Source of the DNA: Halobacillus sp. Marseille-Q1614
GTDB lineage: Bacteria; Bacillota; Bacilli; Bacillales; Halobacillaceae
DNA length: 64,000 nucleotides
NCBI RefSeq assembly: GCF_902809865.1
Contig: NZ_CADDWH010000001.1
Span: 1,798,001-1,862,000 of the forward strand
Reading direction: 5' to 3'
The position numbers were made by a program, and so were the translations under genes. Positions 55,327 to 64,000 of the stretch are shown here, piece by piece. The notes below the pieces were generated by a model that did not search any database, was not told the DNA's origin, and worked only from the letters and a program-made list of their open reading frames with translations. Position 1 is the first letter of the stretch. Each line of letters starts with the position of its first letter.

Positions 55327-55467
55327 AGTAATAACTTTATATCTAAACGGCTCGGCCACTCTGATATTTGGATTACTATGGATAATTATGGTCATGCTAT
55401 TAGAACAGCAGATCAGGAAGCAGCAAACAAAATTTGCGGTATCTTTACAGAGCGTAAAAATGGCTAA
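55327..55467 (+). pseudogene. Tyrosine integrase C-terminal remnant
   Basis: In frame from about 55327: SNNFISKRLGHSDIWITMDN, then YGHAIRTADQEAANKICG and a stop after KNG. This is the end of a phage-type integrase: RLGHSDI (conserved His box region) and the catalytic Tyr in MDNYGH. No start or upstream domain is present; about 330 residues are missing. It marks an old integration event next to the tRNA fragment. Confidence 0.8.
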
Positions 55468-55502
55468 TTAAAAATTTCATCAACAAGTGCCAAAAACAAA
55501 AG

Positions 55503-55540
55503 AAATGACGCGGCCTCCCCTCTGCTGGGAAACCGCGCCA
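55503..55540 (-). terminator. Terminator downstream of the tRNA-like fragment
   Basis: Minus strand GCGCGGTTTCC / GGAGGCCGCGT followed by CATTTCTTTTG. It lies 20 bp after the tRNA 3' end, as expected for a tRNA transcription unit. Confidence 0.65.
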
Positions 55541-55559
55541 CTCCGGCACTTTGTATGGA

Positions 55560-55634
55560 TGATTCCGATTGGGCTCGAACCAACGACCTCCACCCTGTCA
55601 AGGTGCGAGGAGTATACGCCACAACGTGGGAATC
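55560..55634 (-). tRNA. tRNA-Val(GAC)-like fragment / attachment site (5' half not canonical)
   Basis: The minus strand shows an anticodon loop TTGACAG with stem CACC/GGTG (anticodon GAC), variable loop, a good T arm (GTTGG TTCGAGC CCAAT) and 3' acceptor CGGAATC plus A. The total of 75 nt to a GATTCCC at 55628-55634 would be tRNA length, yet the D-arm region lacks TAGCTC, GG and a stem, and position 7 does not pair. Most likely the 3' half (55560-55605) is an att copy left by an integrating element, with the 5' half replaced. It is probably not a functional tRNA. Confidence 0.55.
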
Positions 55635-55845: not shown

Positions 55846-56589
55846 TTATTTCTGTATACCATGTCGCTCTCTCATGGATACTTTCCCATCGATAAGTATT
55901 GAATAGGAATCATGAACAATTCTGTCTAATATAGCGTCTGCTATCGTTGATTCTCCAATGCGTTCATACCATCCTTCAGGCGCAAATTGGGAACAAAAAA
56001 TTGTTGAAGCCGATTGATGTCTACTTTCTACAATTTCTAGTAAATCCCTTTCCTGTGTATCTTGTAAAGGTGACAATAACCACTCATCTAATATTAGTAA
56101 ATCGACTTTTTTATACTGCTTGATCGTCTTTTGAAAGATGCCTTGTCCCCGGGCTACGGCAAGTTCTTCTAATAAATCTGGGAGTCTAACATATTTAACC
56201 TTATAGTACTTTCTACAAGCAGAAACTCCTAAAGCATTAGAAAGATAAGACTTACCATTTCCAGAGGCTCCTAAGATCATGACGTTATGATTATCTTCGA
56301 TATACTGGCAATCGGCAAGACGAAGAATTGAGGGCTTATCTAATTTTCTATCTGGATGATACTCGATGTCTTCGACACACGCCTGGCTATATCGAAAGTT
56401 TGCATTTCTGATTAAACGATCCATCTTATTACTCTTTCTTTTAGAATACTCAATGTCGACTAATAAACTAAAACGATCATCGAATGATAAGTCTTGATAA
56501 TCCGGATTTGAACGTTGGTTAATATAAGTATCGGCCATGGCATTTAGCCTCATTTCATTCAATTTCATTATTGTATTTTCATTTGTCAT
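55846..56589 (-). CDS. istB: IS21-family helper ATPase IstB
   Basis: 247-aa AAA+ ATPase that helps the transposase choose and join the target. Walker A GASGNGKSYLSNAL, Walker B VDLLILDEWLL, sensor region FCSQFAPEGWYERIGE. Start at MTNENTIMK (56589) because GGAGGAAAACAAA lies upstream; it overlaps the istA end by 11 bp, as normal in IS21. Length usual. Confidence 0.95.
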   Translation of the reverse strand: MTNENTIMKLNEMRLNAMADTYINQRSNPDYQDLSFDDRFSLLVDIEYSKRKSNKMDRLIRNANFRYSQACVEDIEYHPDRKLDKPSILRLADCQYIEDNHNVMILGASGNGKSYLSNALGVSACRKYYKVKYVRLPDLLEELAVARGQGIFQKTIKQYKKVDLLILDEWLLSPLQDTQERDLLEIVESRHQSASTIFCSQFAPEGWYERIGESTIADAILDRIVHDSYSILIDGKVSMRERHGIQK

Positions 56590-58132
56590 TTTGTTTTCCT
56601 CCAAAGTATTCGGCACCTCTAGTAAAGCCAAAAGCACCAGACGGTTTAGTTGTTTTCTTCGTATTTGAGGTATTAAAACTTTTATCTGTTCCTTGTTTTA
56701 AAATAGTCTTTATACTGTTTAATCTTGGAGAAGGTGAATAAGTCAGTGCCTGACGGCACGCCTCTTCTAAACGTTCTAGCGAATAGCGATCGGCAAGTTT
56801 AACAATCCCCATACAAATTTTTTGGGCTTGGCGTTCCACCCTATAGGACTTAAATACAGATTCCATTACAAGCTTGGTATGATTTCCGACTTTATCTGCC
56901 CAATCGAATATATGGGCCTTATCCCACTCTACATACATTCGATGATTGTCAGGCATATGTTCAGGAATAGTGGAAGGATCTTTATTTAATCCTGTTTTTC
57001 TCATATGTGAGGCGATACGAAGGTGATTAAAGAATATTTCAATCACCGTTGTGGTCGCTCTGATGTCCACTTTGTGTTTGACATATTCATAGGGAACCGA
57101 GTAATGAATTTCGTCTACGACTATGTGATAATCAAGAGGTACGGTAGCTGTTTTCCAGGTAGCTAGTTCGTACTGTTTAAACGGTAGTGGTAGTAGAGCA
57201 AATTTTTCTTCCTCATGGAAAGCAATTTGTCTACTACCTGTTTTTTTCTGAAATGACTTTTCATTGAACTCTTTCAATTTCATTTGAATGGCTAAATTCA
57301 ACTCTTTGAGTGAAAAGAAGGTTTCATTTCTTAAAGCCGCGATAATCCAAGTTGATACAACACCTACATTTCCTTCTACACTAGCTTTGTCTCTGGGTTG
57401 TCGGACTCGAGCAGGAACTACTGCGGTTCCATAATACTCTGCCATCTCATAATAAGAGCGATTAATTTTGGGATCCCAATAGTTAGATCGATCCACCCCT
57501 GTCCTCAAATTATCTGGCACAATCATATTCGTTACCCCTCCATAAAATTGAAAGGCATGAATATGAGCTGTAATCCAGTTTTCGAGGTTCTGTGACAGAA
57601 ATGCTTCCACATATGTGTATTGACTACAAGGAAGTTTAGCGACGAAAATATAGGCTGGTATTTTTTCTCCTGAAATATTATCTTTTAGAAAAGCTGTTTG
57701 ACCTGCCCAATCAACTTCCATCAACTCTCCAGGCTTTCGTTTGATCCTTAAAGTAGCTTTCGTTGTGTTTGCGTATTTTCGATAGTGAAAACAGAATTGA
57801 GTGTACATATAAGGCGTTTCATCAGCTTGATAACAAACTCTACAGTACTCCTCCCATAAGAGAGTCAATGTCACTCCTTTTTTCGCCAGCTCAGTATGAA
57901 CGTATTCATAATCAGGCATACGATGGTTTTGAACTTTGGACTTCTCTGGAAAGAGAAAATTCTGTAAGTCACCATCCGTTACTTCGTCTGACAATGGCCA
58001 GGAAATATCACAAACTGCAGCTCTGTCAAGAACTGATGTGATCGTATTCCTGGAGCACCCACAACTAGCAGCAATGCTTCTTTTACTCATTCCCTGGCTG
58101 TATAGCCGTAAGATCTCCCGGTATTTTACCAA
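56579..58132 (-). CDS. istA: IS21-family transposase IstA
   Basis: 517-aa DDE transposase. N-terminal helix-turn-helix (SKRSIAASCGCSRNTI, residues 15-30); catalytic domain with Asp in MEVDWAGQT, Asp in VPDNLRTGV and Glu in DKASVEGNVG; C-terminal domain with VPYEYVKHKVDIRATTT. TTG start, 7 nt after AGGGGGT. No frameshift visible, so an intact element. Confidence 0.95.
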   Translation of the reverse strand: MVKYREILRLYSQGMSKRSIAASCGCSRNTITSVLDRAAVCDISWPLSDEVTDGDLQNFLFPEKSKVQNHRMPDYEYVHTELAKKGVTLTLLWEEYCRVCYQADETPYMYTQFCFHYRKYANTTKATLRIKRKPGELMEVDWAGQTAFLKDNISGEKIPAYIFVAKLPCSQYTYVEAFLSQNLENWITAHIHAFQFYGGVTNMIVPDNLRTGVDRSNYWDPKINRSYYEMAEYYGTAVVPARVRQPRDKASVEGNVGVVSTWIIAALRNETFFSLKELNLAIQMKLKEFNEKSFQKKTGSRQIAFHEEEKFALLPLPFKQYELATWKTATVPLDYHIVVDEIHYSVPYEYVKHKVDIRATTTVIEIFFNHLRIASHMRKTGLNKDPSTIPEHMPDNHRMYVEWDKAHIFDWADKVGNHTKLVMESVFKSYRVERQAQKICMGIVKLADRYSLERLEEACRQALTYSPSPRLNSIKTILKQGTDKSFNTSNTKKTTKPSGAFGFTRGAEYFGGKQNDK

Positions 58133-58463: not shown

Positions 58464-59075
58464 ATGAAGAAAATTTTCAAGTTTGGTCTCTACGCATTTT
58501 TAGCCATTATTGTACTCGGTGTTGTTGCAACGGTATTTGGAGGCGAGGATACGGCGGAAAGCACCGACTCAGAACCGGCAAGTGCTGAAGCTGAAGGTTC
58601 CGAAAGTAAAGAAGCGTCAAAAGATGAGTCAAGCGATGAAGCAGAGGAAAAAACATATGGGATCGGTGACACGGTAGAAGTCGGTGCTATGACATACACG
58701 ATAAACGAAAAGTCTACCGCTGATGAAGTCGGACCGAGTGTTATGCCCGAAACAGCAAGCGGTAAATACGTTGTACTTAACGTTACTGTTAAAAACAACG
58801 GTGACGAGGCCGTTACAGTCGACGGTACTTACTTTAAGCTGAAACAAAACGATAAAACGTTTGAGGCGGATACGATGGCAAGTACATCAGCCAACCAAGC
58901 TGAAGATGGATCTATCGAAAATTCGTTCTTCCTGGAGCAACTTAATCCAGGATCTGAGATTAGCGGTAACGTTGTTTTTGACGTAGCGCCTGAGATTGCG
59001 GATGCTGACGATTTAAGCGTAGAAGCACAGGAAGGCATATTCGGCACAGTAACCGAAACTATTACGTTACAATAA
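58464..59075 (+). CDS. DUF4352-containing membrane-anchored protein
   Basis: 203-aa exported protein. Residues 5-26 form a hydrophobic anchor (FGLYAFLAIIVLGVVATVFGG) without lipobox Cys. A 45-residue linker of Glu, Ser, Ala and Asp follows (STDSEPASAEAEGSESKEAS), then an immunoglobulin-like DUF4352 domain: YTINEKSTADEVG, KYVVLNVTVKNNGDEAVTV, NPGSEISGNVVFDVAPE. Such proteins are common on phages and integrative elements of Bacillales; function unknown. Codon use resembles the phage-like genes at 62-64 kb more than its AT-rich neighbours. Confidence 0.82.
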   Translation: MKKIFKFGLYAFLAIIVLGVVATVFGGEDTAESTDSEPASAEAEGSESKEASKDESSDEAEEKTYGIGDTVEVGAMTYTINEKSTADEVGPSVMPETASGKYVVLNVTVKNNGDEAVTVDGTYFKLKQNDKTFEADTMASTSANQAEDGSIENSFFLEQLNPGSEISGNVVFDVAPEIADADDLSVEAQEGIFGTVTETITLQ

Positions 59076-59116: not shown

Positions 59117-59293
59117 GCGCTCTGTGTTGCATCGAGTTGACCGTTCCCCGTCGAAGTTACAGTAATTTGTAATATACAAAAATCGCTTTAAAAATTAAAG
59201 GTTTAGTCTCCTTTGAGGAAAACTTTATTGTAGTATGTTACTAAAGTAAGGATATAATTAAATTTTCTTTGGACGGATCATTGAAAACTAAGA

Positions 59294-59326
59294 AAAGCCC
59301 TTAACAATAAGTGCAAGGGCTCAATT
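59294..59326. terminator. Terminator of the three-gene cassette
   Basis: Stem AGCCCTT / AAGGGCT with twelve-base loop; T-runs on both strands. It lies 26 bp beyond the last cassette gene. Confidence 0.7.
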
Positions 59327-59351
59327 TTTCAGTATTGAAGAAGGTATGAAT

Positions 59352-59999
59352 TTATTCAGGTTTGGTTAGAGTCCCCCTATAAAGCTCCTTCATTGTTATG
59401 AGTTCCCCTTTAATTAATTCAAGAATTTTCTCTATATTTTCTTTATCCTCTATCTCAAAAACAATTATTTTTAAATACTTGTATATTTGAAATGATTTCT
59501 TAAATGCTTTTATATCATTATTAAATTTTTGTGTTCTTAACTCATTTAAGAAATCCGAGTAAAAAGTAAAGTCGACCTGAGTATAAATCGTTAGAAAAAT
59601 CTCTTTAACTTCTTGACCTTCAGCAATATCAATAGCTAACTCTGTTATAGATGATTGATTTATCATTTTTGAAATTTTATCTAAAGCCTCTAAATTATCT
59701 TTATATTCTTCCTTAATACTCTCGTAATGTTTGTTTTCATTTTCCTCTTTTTCTTTCTCTTTTCCCCTTTCCTGGAGTTGATATATAAAAAATGCAACTA
59801 GGCCCGACAAAGTACTACCAATTAATACAAAACTTGCTCGTATATACATATCTAATAAATCTATACTTTTGTGGTCAATTATAACTTTATTAGTTATTAG
59901 GAGTAAGACTAATGAAAAAGCACAAAATATCGCCAATGAAATAACAACTAGCAATAAACTAAATGTAGTAAATCTTCTTTTCTTTTTAGTTTTTAACAT
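59352..59999 (-). CDS. Unknown two-helix membrane protein with coiled coil (cassette gene 3)
   Basis: 215-aa protein of no recognised family. A basic start (MLKTKKKRR) leads into two hydrophobic helices (about 12-37 and 50-75), then a highly charged stretch ERGKEKEKEENENKHYES predicted as coiled coil and a helical C-terminal domain with many Lys, Glu, Ile and Phe (FNNDIKAFKKSFQIYKYLKI). Both termini should lie in the cytosol. It lies 12 bp downstream of the zinc-ribbon gene and ends before a terminator, so it is last in a three-gene operon. Its AT content is markedly higher than the flanking genes. As a membrane component at the end of a cargo operon it could be an effector, which is speculation. 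Confidence 0.7.
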   Translation of the reverse strand: MLKTKKKRRFTTFSLLLVVISLAIFCAFSLVLLLITNKVIIDHKSIDLLDMYIRASFVLIGSTLSGLVAFFIYQLQERGKEKEKEENENKHYESIKEEYKDNLEALDKISKMINQSSITELAIDIAEGQEVKEIFLTIYTQVDFTFYSDFLNELRTQKFNNDIKAFKKSFQIYKYLKIIVFEIEDKENIEKILELIKGELITMKELYRGTLTKPE

Positions 60000-60011
60000 C
60001 TACCATATTCC

Positions 60012-60605
60012 CTACAATAAATTTCTATATTTTCTAATTCTTTTTGAGCGTTCAAACGAGACTTTACTAATCATTTTCCCATCCTTGATAATTAATTCTT
60101 CAGCTGTATTAAAATTGACGTTCTCTAGATCTCCCCTCTCATCAGTTACAGCTGAAGATATTGTATTTATACTAGAAAGGGGATTTATCTTTAAATTATC
60201 GTTTACAGCTTCTAATAACTTATCCTCTATTTTAAACATTAGTTTGACTTCGCTTAAGTAATCCGAAGTCTCTAAATAATCCTCAAAACCACACCTTTTA
60301 CATTTAAAGTTCACTAATGCTTTTTCATCTTTTATGATATTAATAGCATCACATTCATCGCACTGATATTTATAATACTGTCGTAGTATTTCTTCACTAT
60401 CAGTTAACCCTAAAAAAAACCTTATAGCTGCTTTAGGCGGTTTTGAAAAAGATAAGGCGAATCTATATGGACTAAGATACTCTGCTCCTAATTCAACTTC
60501 ATTTGATATAAATTGCTGTAATAGAGGAAAATACTCGCTAAAAGGGAACTCTTCAGCTATTACTTCATTTTCAGTGTATAAAGCGTTTAATCTTTTGTAT
60601 AACAT
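60012..60605 (-). CDS. Unknown zinc-ribbon protein (cassette gene 2)
   Basis: 197-aa protein with a clear zinc ribbon: Cys-82 and Cys-85 (QCDECDA) and Cys-102 and Cys-105 (KCKRCGF), spaced C-x2-C-x16-C-x2-C. Before it is a helical region with LSPYRFALSFSKPPKAAIRF that may be a small DNA- or protein-binding domain; behind it come a variable linker and a basic tail (FERSKRIRKYRNLL). The gene starts inside the previous gene (35-bp overlap), a sign of coupled translation. No family recognised. Zinc ribbons with an N-terminal helical domain often act as adaptors for nucleic acids or protein partners. Confidence 0.72.
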   Translation of the reverse strand: MLYKRLNALYTENEVIAEEFPFSEYFPLLQQFISNEVELGAEYLSPYRFALSFSKPPKAAIRFFLGLTDSEEILRQYYKYQCDECDAINIIKDEKALVNFKCKRCGFEDYLETSDYLSEVKLMFKIEDKLLEAVNDNLKINPLSSINTISSAVTDERGDLENVNFNTAEELIIKDGKMISKVSFERSKRIRKYRNLL

Positions 60606-61848
60606 ACTCTTCCCTTATTCTCCTCTCCTTTACAGAATGATTTAGTAGTTCTGAATGAGTATCACCTACGTAATAATGAATTTCTAAAACGCTATGAATT
60701 TCTTTTAATGCTATCTCAACGAAAGAAACCTCTCTATCTTTTTCCTTTCCAGAGAGCCTTTGAAAATAATTACCTTTCAAAAATTTCCAGTAAATCCCTA
60801 ACTCAGAAACCTCTCCATACTCTTTAACTACATCTTTTAAACTCCAATAAATCTTAGAGTAATAAACTGGTTTATGTTCTTCATTTCTGTTAGTTGACCT
60901 TGTTATCCTTCGATCAATAAAACTAAAGCTAAAAATGTATCCGCCATCTCGAATAAACTTTTCATGCTCCATGCTTTTAGCTGTATCTTGATATTTTACC
61001 GTCATTACTTTCTCGACAAAAGGTTCTGGGTTCAATATATGTAATTCCTCTTTAAGATATTTTGAAATGTTTTCTTTAAAGGACTTCTCTGTTACCTCTA
61101 CACTTTCCTTTTCGCTTTTGGCAACTTCCTTTTTTATTAATTTTAATGATTTATTAGACTCTTCTAGAAATAGTTTATATAAGCCTTTATGGATTTTTGC
61201 TTCTCCAGACTTAGCAGTAGTTAATGCAAGTGGTAACTGAACATTTACTATATTTATTATATAATCAATTACCTCTTTTAACCTGAGTGTACTCGGCTTA
61301 CTAACATTCCTCAACAAATATTGATTTAATCTAATTTCCATATGATTTTGTCTAAAATCAAGAATACATGATACATAGAAATTACATCCTTCTTTTTTCA
61401 ATCCAAGTTCAGCTTCTCCCAATTTAAATAGGAAAATTAATTTTTCTCCTTCTTTTCGAATAGATATTAATTCTTCTTCCTCCGATACAACTAATGAAAG
61501 TTTTCGGTTAATATAAGGACAATATTTGCTAGAAATAAACAATTCATTAAAAGCTTTTTCTGCTGTTAAGTCCGTATTAATTTTCAAATAGTAACACCGT
61601 TCTGGAAATAGATGAACTATCGAATCAAAAAGAACATTGTCAATTATAGTATCATTAAGTCCTTTTTTAACATTTTCATTTAACAAAGCGCGAATTTTTT
61701 GGTAGTTATTGCTCCCTGGTGCTGCCTTTATTAACTTCGTATAGTTTGGGATATGGCCTTCCAATAATTTCGTTAATTGTTGTATCCCAAAATTTCTTAA
61801 TAAGCGAAACTTATAATCATAAAGCCTTATTTTTGTCTCTATCTCCAT
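60571..61848 (-). CDS. Unknown protein, 425 aa (cassette gene 1)
   Basis: Large soluble protein without signal, transmembrane segment or motif I recognise. N-terminus: helical (LLRNFGIQQLTKLLEGHIPN, LNENVKKGLNDTII). Middle: beta-rich (ELISIRKEGEKLIFLFKLGE, CNFYVSCILDFRQNHMEIRL). About residues 235-270 are Lys/Glu-rich and may form a coiled coil (SNKSLKLIKKEVAKSEKESV). The C-terminal part is Arg/Lys rich (FIDRRITRSTNRNEE). Good ribosome site AGGGGAG 5 nt before the ATG. The gene overlaps the next by 35 bp. AT-rich codon use sets it apart from the neighbouring phage-like genes. Confidence 0.7.
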   Translation of the reverse strand: MEIETKIRLYDYKFRLLRNFGIQQLTKLLEGHIPNYTKLIKAAPGSNNYQKIRALLNENVKKGLNDTIIDNVLFDSIVHLFPERCYYLKINTDLTAEKAFNELFISSKYCPYINRKLSLVVSEEEELISIRKEGEKLIFLFKLGEAELGLKKEGCNFYVSCILDFRQNHMEIRLNQYLLRNVSKPSTLRLKEVIDYIINIVNVQLPLALTTAKSGEAKIHKGLYKLFLEESNKSLKLIKKEVAKSEKESVEVTEKSFKENISKYLKEELHILNPEPFVEKVMTVKYQDTAKSMEHEKFIRDGGYIFSFSFIDRRITRSTNRNEEHKPVYYSKIYWSLKDVVKEYGEVSELGIYWKFLKGNYFQRLSGKEKDREVSFVEIALKEIHSVLEIHYYVGDTHSELLNHSVKERRIREEYVIQKIKRFIH

Positions 61849-62121
61849 GATATCTCCCCTAATTAGTTACATTTTATGTATATTTTACACTTATTTTACC
61901 ATTTAAGGAAGTACCCTGAAATTTTTTATAACCTATAACCCTTAAACTTTGAGAGGAAAATAACTCTTTCAAAATACTAACACTACTAACATTAAAAATA
62001 TCACACCACAAGGTTTGCCCCTAACATAAGGGCTACTTTATCATTTTATATGAAATTTTTTGTTATATGTCATTTTCTATTTCTTCGCTGGTATTTCGTA
62101 TTGCACCGATAGACTCGTAAA
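61849..62121. other. AT-rich leader region of the three-gene cassette
   Basis: 273 bp without a convincing gene. It holds two small hairpins, TTTGAGAG / CTCTTTCAAA near 61948-61975 and GCCC / GGGC near 62027-62045, and the likely cassette promoter, which could not be assigned with confidence. Confidence 0.45.
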
Positions 62122-62232
62122 CTAAACGAATGTGTGTATAAGATACGCCCGCCCTGCTGTTTTATGCGTTTCAAGTTCGTTGTATTCCTCGGTACTGTGT
62201 ACTCGTTGTGTTTTCGTTGTCATAATTTCCAT
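62122..62232 (-). CDS. Possible small protein, 36 aa
   Basis: Short frame on the minus strand beginning MEIMTTKTQRVHSTEEYNEL and ending AYLIHTFV. GGGGG is 9 nt before the ATG; a second ATG three codons later is also possible. Base composition matches the phage-like genes upstream. It lies beyond the terminator at 62256-62287, so it would need its own promoter. Weakly supported. Confidence 0.35.
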   Translation of the reverse strand: MEIMTTKTQRVHSTEEYNELETHKTAGRAYLIHTFV

Positions 62233-62255
62233 GTAACGTTGTCCCCCTTCGTGTA

Positions 62256-62287
62256 TTAAAAAGGAACCCCGATGATTCGAGGCTCCC
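62256..62287 (-). terminator. Terminator of the phage-like gene run
   Basis: Minus strand stem GGAGCCTCG / CGGGGTTCC (two G-U pairs), loop AATCAT, then TTTTT; 20 bp after the 99-aa gene. Confidence 0.75.
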
Positions 62288-62307
62288 CGTGTCTACGTTT
62301 CTATCGA

Positions 62308-62607
62308 TTATGCAAATGTAACGCTGTTCACTAGTGGATCAGCCGTAAACTTGGCGACTAGATGCGTCTGCAGCGTACTAGATAACGTTACCTCAGCCGG
62401 CAGGTTAACCGTAATGTCGTTGGCTGTATGGCCTTTAGATACATTACGTTGAATAACCTTGCTAACGACTTTCTCAATAAACTCGACGACGGTCATACCT
62501 GAGGTATCGTTAGTTAACGTATTCCCTGATGCGTCCTTAGCCGTTAGTGCTCGGTAATCCGCCCCGTGTCTGCCTTCGTGTTCCCTGTACATGATATTGA
62601 TTTCCAT
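62308..62607 (-). CDS. Hypothetical phage-like protein, 99 aa
   Basis: Small soluble protein, no family recognised. Sequence begins MEINIMYREHEGRHGADYRA and has a Thr/Val-rich C-terminal half (VNLPAEVTLSSTLQTHLVAKF) suggestive of beta strands. AAAGGAGG is 8 nt before the ATG. It is last in a minus-strand run with the genes at 62754, 63405 and 63749 and followed by a terminator. GC content is clearly higher than in the cassette to its left. Confidence 0.65.
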   Translation of the reverse strand: MEINIMYREHEGRHGADYRALTAKDASGNTLTNDTSGMTVVEFIEKVVSKVIQRNVSKGHTANDITVNLPAEVTLSSTLQTHLVAKFTADPLVNSVTFA

Positions 62608-62753
62608 TTATATTTCCTCCTTTGTAATTGAGCAAGGCTTTAGCGCGATGCCGGGTGCCTTGCTTACCCGTTGATGAGTCGTTTCCTTGCCCCTCCGCCG
62701 TGCCACCGATCCGCACGACGATCGATACTGCCGTGCACTCGGGGGGTTGAGGC

Positions 62754-63371
62754 TTAGTAACTCTTAGGCTTGTAGCTGAATGCCGGGTGAGTCATTTGTA
62801 AAGTACGGTACTTATGAGTAACACCCGATACCTTGGCGTCTTGCAACTCGGTTAATCTCTCTTGCTCAGGCGTCTGTAGTGCGTTAAACGTGTTGTTTAC
62901 TTGACGTAGCTTCTTCATTGCGAACTCATCGTCCTGGACGGCTTGTGCTACGTCTGGTAGTTGCTGTTTAACCGCATAAAGTCCACCCTCTGTTTCGAAG
63001 TGGCCCATTTTTTCCTCGAATCTCTCGATTGCTTGACGTTTATCACTGTCGGTCATAGCGAATGTTAATTCTGCCTTTAAGTCGGTTACAAATTGCTTCG
63101 CTAAGTCTCGATCACTAGGCATCACTCGAAAAGAGGAACGGGCTGCCTCGCGTTCTGCCTGCTCAATGTCAGCGTCGATATGTGCATGAAATTCCTTGTT
63201 GATTTCGCCTACCTTCGTATCTAGTTCGCCTTTCAGCTTGTTGATCTCGTATTCTCGTACCTCTGCGTCTTTGTAGTACGGGTTATCACTCGTGTTGATC
63301 GCGTCCACGTTCTTACGAAAGTCCTTCGTTAGCTTCTCTACTTCTTTTTTTAGTTGTTCTCTTTTATCCAT
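62754..63371 (-). CDS. Hypothetical phage-like coiled-coil protein, 205 aa
   Basis: Highly charged, almost wholly helical protein (KREQLKKEVEKLTKDFRKNV, DADIEQAEREAARSSF, QAIERFEEKMGHFETE), with an end HKYRTLQMTHPAFSYKPKSY. Size and helical charge pattern recall phage scaffolding or head-associated proteins that lie before a capsid gene, but no family is recognised. AAAGGGG is 8 nt before the ATG. 33 bp separate it from the upstream gene. Confidence 0.65.
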   Translation of the reverse strand: MDKREQLKKEVEKLTKDFRKNVDAINTSDNPYYKDAEVREYEINKLKGELDTKVGEINKEFHAHIDADIEQAEREAARSSFRVMPSDRDLAKQFVTDLKAELTFAMTDSDKRQAIERFEEKMGHFETEGGLYAVKQQLPDVAQAVQDDEFAMKKLRQVNNTFNALQTPEQERLTELQDAKVSGVTHKYRTLQMTHPAFSYKPKSY

Positions 63372-63404
63372 TTGAATTTCCCCTTTGTACTTAGTGTTGG
63401 TTTC

Positions 63405-63749
63405 TTATTTAGTGCGCTTGTTAAGCGTGCGCACATACGGCAGGTCTACGTTACTCATCACTTGCTTTTCGATATAATCCTCAGCCTTTAGAAACGTGTC
63501 TAACTGCGCTCGTGCATCGTAGTAGGCACGTTGTTCGTTCTTATCGGTGCTGTATCGTAACTTGTAAACGGTCTTCCCATCGCTGTACCGCATTACAATC
63601 GCTCGAACCTTGCATTCATGCCGGTTGACTCGATCCACCGTGATCCTCGTTAATACTTGACCCTCGGTTGCTTTGTCGCTCTCATACGCTTGCCCTCGTG
63701 GTGTATCCTTATCGTCGTCTCTTCCGAACCATTGCCCCCATGCTCCCAC
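63405..63749 (-). CDS. Hypothetical phage-like protein, 114 aa
   Basis: Soluble basic protein starting (V)GAWGQWFGRDDDKDTPRG with an Asp-rich N-terminus, a probable beta region (ECKVRAIVMRYSDGKTVYKL) and a basic end RTLNKRTK. Start codon is GTG and shares its first base with the stop of the preceding gene (TAGTG), so the pair is coupled. AAAGGCGG lies about 10 nt upstream. No family recognised. Confidence 0.65.
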   Translation of the reverse strand: MGAWGQWFGRDDDKDTPRGQAYESDKATEGQVLTRITVDRVNRHECKVRAIVMRYSDGKTVYKLRYSTDKNEQRAYYDARAQLDTFLKAEDYIEKQVMSNVDLPYVRTLNKRTK

Positions 63750-64000
63750 TATCGCCGACCGCCTTTCTTACGTTTAAATCGTCTGCTTTGTTGCTTAAAG
63801 TACTCTAAATGCTCCGGCGTCTGCCGGCTGTGGATGATCGAATACCTGCGCGGTGCTTGCCATGTACGTTTTGGCGGGGCCAAGCCCGATAATTCCTCGT
63901 CGCTCTCTAATAGTTCCTGCAGCCAACGTTCAACACTGTCATTTGGCTTTGCCTTGAATCTATTTTCCTGCTCCCTAAAGTATTTGTGACCGTCATTCCT
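63749..64000 (-). CDS. Hypothetical phage-like protein, C-terminal 83 aa (cut by window)
   Basis: Open frame entering from the right edge and ending at TAG 63751-63749. The visible part reads NDGHKYFREQENRFKAKPND, then SVERWLQELLESDEELSG and a very basic tail (RRYSIIHSRQT, QQSRRFKRKKGGRR). Its stop overlaps the next start by one base. The frame has no stop over 250 bp and codon use like its neighbours, so it is real. Basic tail suggests nucleic acid binding. Family not recognised. Confidence 0.6.
   Translation of the reverse strand, partial: RNDGHKYFREQENRFKAKPNDSVERWLQELLESDEELSGLAPPKRTWQAPRRYSIIHSRQTPEHLEYFKQQSRRFKRKKGGRR

What the first reader, a model, noticed from the sequence alone, without database searches (positions are those of the whole stretch)
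59352..61848. AT-rich three-gene cargo cassette of unknown function (candidate undescribed system)
Three minus-strand genes form one operon: a 425-aa soluble protein, a 197-aa zinc-ribbon protein overlapping it by 35 bp, and a 215-aa protein with two membrane helices and a coiled coil 12 bp further on. None shows a motif I recognise except the C-x2-C-x16-C-x2-C ribbon. The set is enclosed by terminators, is visibly more AT-rich than both sides, and sits between a DUF4352 gene and phage-like genes beside an attachment scar. That is where defence or fitness cargo is often found, and a sensor-adaptor-membrane effector order would fit. The functional idea is inference only.
Basis: partly seen in the sequence, partly recalled or inferred. 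Interest (0 to 1): 0.72.

Follow-up and report, generated by a model that had tools for sequence, protein, structure and literature searches.

The report
Prophage-borne modular putative defence operon
Three small adjacent genes of unknown function turn out to travel together between bacteria, often inside dormant viruses, with the last gene exchangeable for relatives of known cell-shutdown proteins, which makes them a good candidate for an undescribed anti-virus immune system.

Summary
Genes A (425 aa), B (197 aa, C-x2-C-x16-C-x2-C) and C (215 aa, two membrane helices) form one minus-strand operon at 29.3% G+C. It lies inside a probable 17-kb integrative element at a tRNA-Val gene, bounded by a perfect 59-bp repeat and carrying a tyrosine integrase read in two pieces.

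None of the three has a significant family match. Seventeen non-redundant loci with A were found. B follows A in 17 of 17, overlapping it by 32-53 bp wherever measured. The third gene is a C homologue in 14 of 17 and an unrelated SLATT-type protein in 3 of 17. A far, weakly linked relative has A followed by a protein ending in a SIR2 domain closest to the Lamassu effector LmuA. By eye, 11 of 17 loci are prophages or phage contigs, and one is a restriction-gene island.

Best reading: A-B is a sensor/adaptor core driving exchangeable cell-shutdown effectors, carried by prophages against rival phages. Conservation, mobility and exchange of the third gene are shown. Defence function and the roles of A and B are inferred; no structure could be predicted. 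It is probably an undescribed system of a known kind.

The parts
60571..61848 (-). gene A, 425 aa soluble protein, putative sensor (no known family)
   Evidence: homologues; profile relation to A' family
60012..60605 (-). gene B, 197 aa, N-terminal region plus C4 zinc ribbon; distant relative of the DUF5939 region of bacterial nucleotide cyclases; putative adaptor
59352..59999 (-). gene C, 215 aa, two hydrophobic segments plus a long hydrophilic tail; putative membrane effector
60571..60605 (-). 35-bp A/B gene overlap; overlap of 32-53 bp, always 2 mod 3, in 16 of 16 loci measured (starts chosen by me): likely translational coupling
59275..59335 (-). intrinsic terminator after C
   Evidence: z -3.5
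55547..55605 (.). 59-bp perfect direct repeat (probable attachment site) matching the 3' end of tRNA-Val(gac), whose repeat copy lies 17 kb further on, at 72580-72638 on the window scale (L027 12580-12638); the two bound a probable integrative element
55339..55546 (.). 208-bp stretch beside the repeat that resembles DNA beside tRNA-Val in sister genomes G001 (82.9%) and G004 (73.8%), in G004 overlapping an integrase-like ORF: probable remnant of another element at the same site
58464..59075 (+). DUF4352 gene between the repeats (neighbour, not counted as part of the system)
   Evidence: E 5.1e-23
55846..58132 (-). two ORFs resembling an IS21-type transposase pair, between the repeats (neighbour; family name recalled, not profile-tested)
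62308..63749 (-). small genes of the element (99, 205, 114 aa) without significant matches

Best explanation
It is a compact, mobile, prophage-carried immune operon. A (cytosolic) senses some sign of infection by another phage; B, a zinc-ribbon protein probably made in step with A through overlapping genes, passes the signal on; C, a two-helix membrane protein with a cytosolic tail, is the effector and on activation damages or depolarises the membrane, so that the infected cell stops before new phages are made. In related operons the effector slot is filled by a SLATT-type 2TM protein or, in one weakly linked case, by a SIR2 (NAD-consuming type) domain in the protein that follows A. Shown here: the operon, its conservation, the constant A-B pair, the exchanged third component, the prophage or integrative-element setting. 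Inferred: the defence function, which protein senses and what, the membrane damage, and abortive infection as the outcome.
For: A-B linkage in 17 of 17 non-redundant loci; C homologue third in 14 of 17, SLATT-type protein third in 3 of 17. The G685 SLATT-type protein matches NCBIfam SLATT_1 E 7.9e-9 and SLATT_4 1.1e-8 (both below curated cut-offs), PADLOC CBASS '2TM Effector' 6.2e-6 and RTasSLATT 6.9e-5; the other two match more weakly. They show no homology to C, so the gene was replaced. They form one clade in the A tree, 99/100. In G1253 a distant A is followed by a 415-aa protein with SIR2_2 (4.4e-23), closest to LmuA (1.3e-54) and ThsA (2.4e-15). A second far branch (G065, G176, viral contig L059) keeps A', B' and, where the contig continues, C' in order (hhalign 2e-10, 1.2e-11, 3e-8). 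Location: probable integrative element here; by eye, phage lysogeny modules, endolysin side or terminase side elsewhere; a restriction-gene island in G303. Sparse occurrence: 3 of 101, 5 of 397, 3 of 398, 1 of 398 and 3 of 197 genomes (overlapping samples, own genome included in the first four and the only hit of the fourth).
Against: I found no report of a test of its function. A and B have no recognised catalytic or sensing motif. C has no significant match to a known effector; matches of single C or C' proteins below cut-off or at low score are scattered: AbiP E 1.4e-4 for the plasmid copy, BhlA holin 0.0018 for the window copy, MASE1 6.2e-4 and DUF92 0.0011 for others, PD-Lambda-6 0.0018 for G176. 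The SLATT-type proteins show only one hydrophobic segment over my threshold, not two. Prophage cargo also includes lysogenic-conversion and lysis genes. Only 1 of 17 loci lies among recognisable restriction genes. The SIR2 case rests on one genome whose A is linked to A only weakly (E 3.6e-4 and 1.7e-4) and whose B part is not significantly B-like (probability 1.8%). The SLATT exchange is supported as one clade by A but only 70/63 by B, so it may be a single event. PADLOC (2023) has no model that A or B match, so they were not listed there as defence candidates.
Confidence: 0.58

Rival explanations
1. Superinfection exclusion without cell death: C sits in the membrane and blocks entry of phage DNA, with A and B as regulators or partners that control it.
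For: Prophage lysogeny-module location in several loci (by eye); C is a small protein with two hydrophobic segments.
Against: An entry block does not explain replacement of C by SLATT-type proteins, or the far A next to SIR2, whose closest PADLOC models are LmuA and ThsA.
Confidence: 0.15
2. Phage-benefit cargo (moron) for lysogenic conversion or control of the prophage's own induction or lysis, not immunity; C could be a holin-like or membrane-stress protein.
For: Some copies lie beside or near endolysin/holin genes by eye (L026, L030, L015); below-cut-off BhlA holin match (E 0.0018).
Against: Also found in lysogeny modules, in a tRNA-Val element, directly after tmRNA, in a restriction island and on a plasmid; SLATT and SIR2 proteins are not lysis proteins.
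Confidence: 0.12
3. Toxin-antitoxin-like or element-maintenance module: C is a membrane toxin held in check by A-B.
For: Overlapping genes, mobile elements, small membrane protein; broken A copies (Priestia plasmid, G1197) exist.
Against: Two large conserved partners for one toxin is unusual; in the two broken copies C still has an open frame (221 aa in G1197; 182 aa, shorter than usual, on the plasmid) although A is interrupted, which an antitoxin role for A would not readily allow.
Confidence: 0.1
4. A signalling module tied to cyclic nucleotides, since B resembles the DUF5939 region of nucleotide cyclases; A-B would sense or bind a nucleotide and C respond.
For: B profile finds long proteins with this region in G129, G092, G046, G159 (E 1.9e-9 to 1e-4); the G129 one is a DUF5939 cyclase (hhalign with B 8.7e-9).
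Against: No cyclase or CD-NTase domain found in the A, B or C proteins scanned; the shared part is the zinc-ribbon region, not the catalytic domain. What DUF5939 itself does I could not find (0 papers).
Confidence: 0.05

Closest known systems
CBASS and DRT systems with SLATT / 2TM effectors
   Same: Third gene of the L017, L018 and G685 loci is a SLATT-type protein; the 2TM effector idea carries over to C
   Different: No CD-NTase or reverse transcriptase match in the operon proteins scanned; A and B match no model above cut-off; C is not homologous to the SLATT proteins
Lamassu (LmuA SIR2 effector) and Thoeris (ThsA)
   Same: SIR2 domain of the G1253 protein is closest to LmuA (1.3e-54) and ThsA (2.4e-15)
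   Different: No LmuB-like SMC protein or ThsB TIR protein seen among the neighbouring ORFs of L054 (by eye only); the partner is an A-like protein
DUF5939-containing nucleotide cyclases
   Same: B shares the zinc-ribbon stretch and the region before it
   Different: B lacks the cyclase domain and is paired with A in mobile elements; the three cyclase loci looked at share one gene order with no phage genes in view (by eye)
AbiP
   Same: C of the Priestia plasmid copy has a weak AbiP match, E 1.4e-4
   Different: The match covers residues 49-108 only; the C or C' proteins of the window, Litchfieldia, L022, G065 and G176 gave none; AbiP having no A-B-like partners is recalled

Membership tests
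CBASS | CD-NTase (SMODS) synthase gene in the operon | tested here: not met
   No CD-NTase match in the A, B, C proteins and far relatives scanned; neighbours beyond the operon were not scanned with PADLOC; that the libraries hold CD-NTase models is recalled
CBASS | 2TM/SLATT effector | tested here: inconclusive
   Third gene of G685 matches, but below NCBIfam cut-offs; C of the window does not
Lamassu | SMC-family LmuB | tested here: not met
   No LmuB match in A or in G1253's A-like protein; G1253 neighbours read by eye only
Lamassu | LmuA-type effector | tested here: met
   Only in the far relative G1253: LmuA 1.3e-54; not in the window
Defence-associated reverse transcriptase with SLATT | reverse transcriptase | tested here: not met
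   No RT match in the A and B proteins scanned
DUF5939 family (B) | Pfam PF19363 above curated cut-off | tested here: not met
   Window B none up to E 1; G065 B' 17.8 bits against cut-off 22.5; related by profile
BhlA holin (C) | PF10960 above cut-off | tested here: not met
   18.6 bits against 22.6; none in six other C proteins and two C'
Abortive-infection systems in general | infected cells arrest or die, protecting the population | not testable with these tools
   needs a phage assay
Abortive-infection systems in general | mobile, patchy, effector exchange around a constant core | tested here: met
   at least one exchange shown (SLATT clade)

The most novel reading that the evidence does not exclude
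A-B is an undescribed class of phage-sensing core, an A superfamily paired with B-type zinc-ribbon partners, onto which evolution plugs unrelated killers (C-type 2TM, SLATT-type, SIR2) by direct protein contact rather than through a nucleotide messenger; prophages and phage-derived elements of Bacillota are its main carriers.
Probability: 0.35. Interest if true: 0.82.

Novelty: new variant of a known kind. Interest (0 to 1): 0.66.

Why it matters
If the reading is right, Bacillota prophages carry a family of immune operons that detection by existing models misses, because its constant parts (A and B) match no model above cut-off in the libraries tried here. The exchange of effectors around a constant core gives a direct, cheap experiment: related A-B pairs can be compared with unrelated effectors, to learn what A senses and how B couples to each. 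It would also tie the zinc-ribbon region of DUF5939, for which I found no paper, to a conflict system.

Tried and rejected
So there are no folds, and no fold search was made. Sequence searches of the PDB with A and with profiles of A, B and C gave only weak matches (best E 0.0069 over 42 residues of A, to an acyltransferase-type chain; others 0.14 or worse), taken as chance.

Single-sequence searches of phage records with three A sequences and one A' gave nothing. Plasmid records gave one place, on the Priestia megaterium plasmid, and none with a SLATT protein, A' or the G1253 A-like protein. The single-sequence scan of genome contigs found no relative; the alignment scan found 6. Scans of viral contigs with the G1253 and G176 A-like proteins found none. 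DNA of 61900-64000 has no match in phage records.

Withdrawn: I first read as showing an empty tRNA-Val site in sister genome G001 and a 70-kb insertion in G004. It is better read as the end of another element. No empty site was found. The element's bounds rest on the perfect repeat, the tRNA and the integrase alone.

Considered and rejected: holin (below cut-off; replacement of C does not fit); CBASS, Lamassu, DRT membership (defining enzyme not found); B as plain transcription factor (always next to A). Zinc-ribbon matches of far B proteins (Lar 2.8e-4 and HVO_0758 7.8e-4; PtuB 0.0076) are below cut-off or weak and taken as ribbon resemblance. Weak C-profile matches to single 2TM proteins in G056 and G165 were set aside as probable matches to the glycine-rich second helix, and not counted as C genes.

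Papers: no paper was opened. Seven searches, listings only: four held no paper; of the others I saw 20 of 43, 15 of 22 and 12 of 23. None of the listed titles and abstract openings describes this operon. The library is partial, so absence there is weak evidence.
Full report
1. The observation. The ribbon C-x2-C-x16-C-x2-C is in B, and its four Cys are invariant in two alignments of 12 homologues each. C has two hydrophobic segments, A and B none. The operon is 29.3% G+C against 45.4% for the part of its element to the right. A terminator follows C (z -3.5); the hairpin upstream of A is weaker and lacks a T-run.

2. No significant family match. The window's A, B and C gave nothing above curated cut-offs in Pfam and NCBIfam and nothing convincing in PADLOC and PHROGs. 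The members of the B and A alignments (12 each) gave no consistent Pfam family (B: DUF5817, 3 of 12 members, best E 0.018). PDB sequence searches gave only weak matches.

3. The element. The window lies at G000 C1:1798001-1862000. A perfect 59-bp repeat occurs at window 55547-55605 and 17 kb further on, at the 3' end of tRNA-Val(gac). Next to the tRNA are two ORFs matching tyrosine integrases (PHROG 2.3e-33 and 4.3e-8), so the integrase gene is read in two pieces. There is also a replication-type HTH gene (3.5e-44) and an endonuclease VII/HNH gene (7.6e-30). In the matches shown for the 10 genes of the element that I scanned there is no capsid, terminase or tail family (further small ORFs were not scanned). 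The A-B-C operon, the DUF4352 gene and an IS21-like pair (name recalled) thus lie between the two repeats. I looked for an empty site in sister genomes and did not find one. In G001 and G004 the repeat is intact at tRNA-Val, but the DNA beside it matches the window only over about 208 bp (82.9% and 73.8%), and in G004 that stretch overlaps an integrase-like ORF (by eye). The window's left repeat therefore seems to adjoin the remnant of another element at the same tRNA.

4. Relatives keep the three genes together. Non-redundant loci with A: window, G005, G303, Litchfieldia salsa, Priestia taiwanensis, Bacillus solitudinis, Domibacillus indicus, Ureibacillus sinduriensis, Evansella tamaricis, five IMG/VR viral contigs (L016, L017, L018, L022, L023), G685 (two copies 99.9% identical over 10.8 kb, counted once), G1197 and a Priestia megaterium plasmid: 17 in all. 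B follows A in 17 of 17. The third gene is homologous to C in 14 of 17 (9 of these were in the C profile itself; L023 is cut by the contig end after 64 residues) and a SLATT-type protein in 3 of 17 (L017, L018, G685). A is interrupted or truncated in the G1197 and plasmid copies, and B is in pieces in the plasmid copy. The A-B overlap is 32-53 bp and always 2 mod 3 in 16 of 16 loci measured: 14 of the 17 plus G065 and G176, with starts chosen by me. pN/pS is 0.21-0.48 in 10 of 10 pairwise tests. A and B trees of 15 of the 17 loci (the two broken copies left out) agree in their major well-supported splits.

5. The third component is exchangeable. The SLATT-type proteins share nothing detectable with C (hhalign probability 0.2%) but match SLATT models: NCBIfam SLATT_1 7.9e-9 and SLATT_4 1.1e-8 for the G685 copy (scores below curated cut-offs), PADLOC CBASS 2TM effector 6.2e-6, RTasSLATT 6.9e-5; the other two match more weakly. 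By my hydropathy rule they show one segment over threshold, not two. They form one clade in the A tree (99/100) and, with less support (70/63), in the B tree, so a single replacement is enough to explain them.

6. Far branches. The B and C profiles led to G065 and G176, where A', B' and C' stand in the same order. A' is linked to A by profile comparison over 317 columns (E 2e-10), B' to B (1.2e-11), C' of G065 to C (3e-8). A viral contig (L059) has A' and B' up to the contig end. In G1253 a still more distant A (E 3.6e-4 by HMMER, 1.7e-4 by hhalign) overlaps a 415-aa protein that ends in a SIR2 domain (Pfam 4.4e-23; PADLOC LmuA 1.3e-54, ThsA 2.4e-15). Its N-terminal part looks like a degenerate B to the eye, but the comparison is not significant (probability 1.8%). 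The B profile also finds long proteins in G046, G092, G129 and G159. The G129 one has DUF5939 (3.5e-22) and a cyclase domain, and those of G046 and G159 look alike. So B and DUF5939 share a zinc-ribbon region.

7. Where they sit. From ORF lists, with gene names read by eye from translations and not profile-tested: lysogeny modules with a repressor-like gene, usually an ImmA-like peptidase and often an integrase (G005, Litchfieldia, Domibacillus, B. solitudinis, L022, L023, L016/L024; also G176 of the far branch); beside or near endolysin or holin genes (L017/L026, G685, Evansella); between early genes and terminase (L018/L025). These are 11 of the 17. The other six: the tRNA-Val element here; a restriction island with type I and Mrr-like genes and a recombinase piece (G303); directly after tmRNA (Priestia taiwanensis); a mobilizable plasmid; and two unclear settings (Ureibacillus, G1197). 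Occurrence is patchy: 3 of 101, 5 of 397, 3 of 398, 1 of 398 (the own genome), and 3 of 197 genomes sampled (samples overlap).

8. Mechanism. The order 'constant pair plus exchangeable third component, the third in some cases of a type known as effector in CBASS, DRT, Lamassu or Thoeris' is what a sensor/adaptor core with plug-in effectors would look like. I therefore put most weight on abortive defence of the lysogen against other phages, with A sensing, B coupling and C acting on the membrane. Which of A and B senses, and what, is inference. Direct contact rather than a diffusible messenger is suggested by the G1253 gene pair (one protein carrying both the post-A segment and the effector), but that rests on one weakly linked genome.

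9. Known or not. The defining enzymes of CBASS, Lamassu and DRT were not found in the operon proteins, so I do not file it as a member of these; it may work like them. A and B match no model above cut-off in the four libraries tried. Seven paper searches (listings only, partly capped) showed no description of it, but that library is partial. PADLOC is of 2023, and newer candidate lists could include it.

Noticed in passing
window 55339-55605; L072 3302-3568; L073 4329-4596; L071 567-677: tRNA-Val(gac) looks like a repeated integration site: the window's left repeat adjoins a probable integrase-end remnant, and similar DNA lies beside tRNA-Val in G001 and G004; G004 has a second, imperfect repeat copy (5 of 59 mismatches) about 70 kb away
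   Followed up: partly
L027 11537-12450 (genome C1, beyond the window): The tyrosine integrase is read as two ORFs (107 and 171 aa), so the element may no longer move by itself
   Followed up: partly
window 58464-59075; L022 6420-7304: A DUF4352 gene lies next to the operon in the window, and a lipoprotein whose tail resembles it (by eye) lies upstream of A in L022
   Followed up: no
L042 949-2790, L044 928-2739, L045 487-2370: Long proteins with a B-like zinc ribbon in a shared gene order after an HD-GYP-like gene (by eye); the L042 one is a DUF5939 cyclase by Pfam; function of the ribbon region unknown
   Followed up: partly
L030 and L031 (G685): Two nearly identical prophage stretches (99.9% over 10.8 kb) in one genome, both carrying the SLATT form
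   Followed up: partly
window 61849-62307: AT-rich intergenic stretch of about 450 bp upstream of A, with a minus-strand hairpin of unclear role (z -2.2)
   Followed up: no
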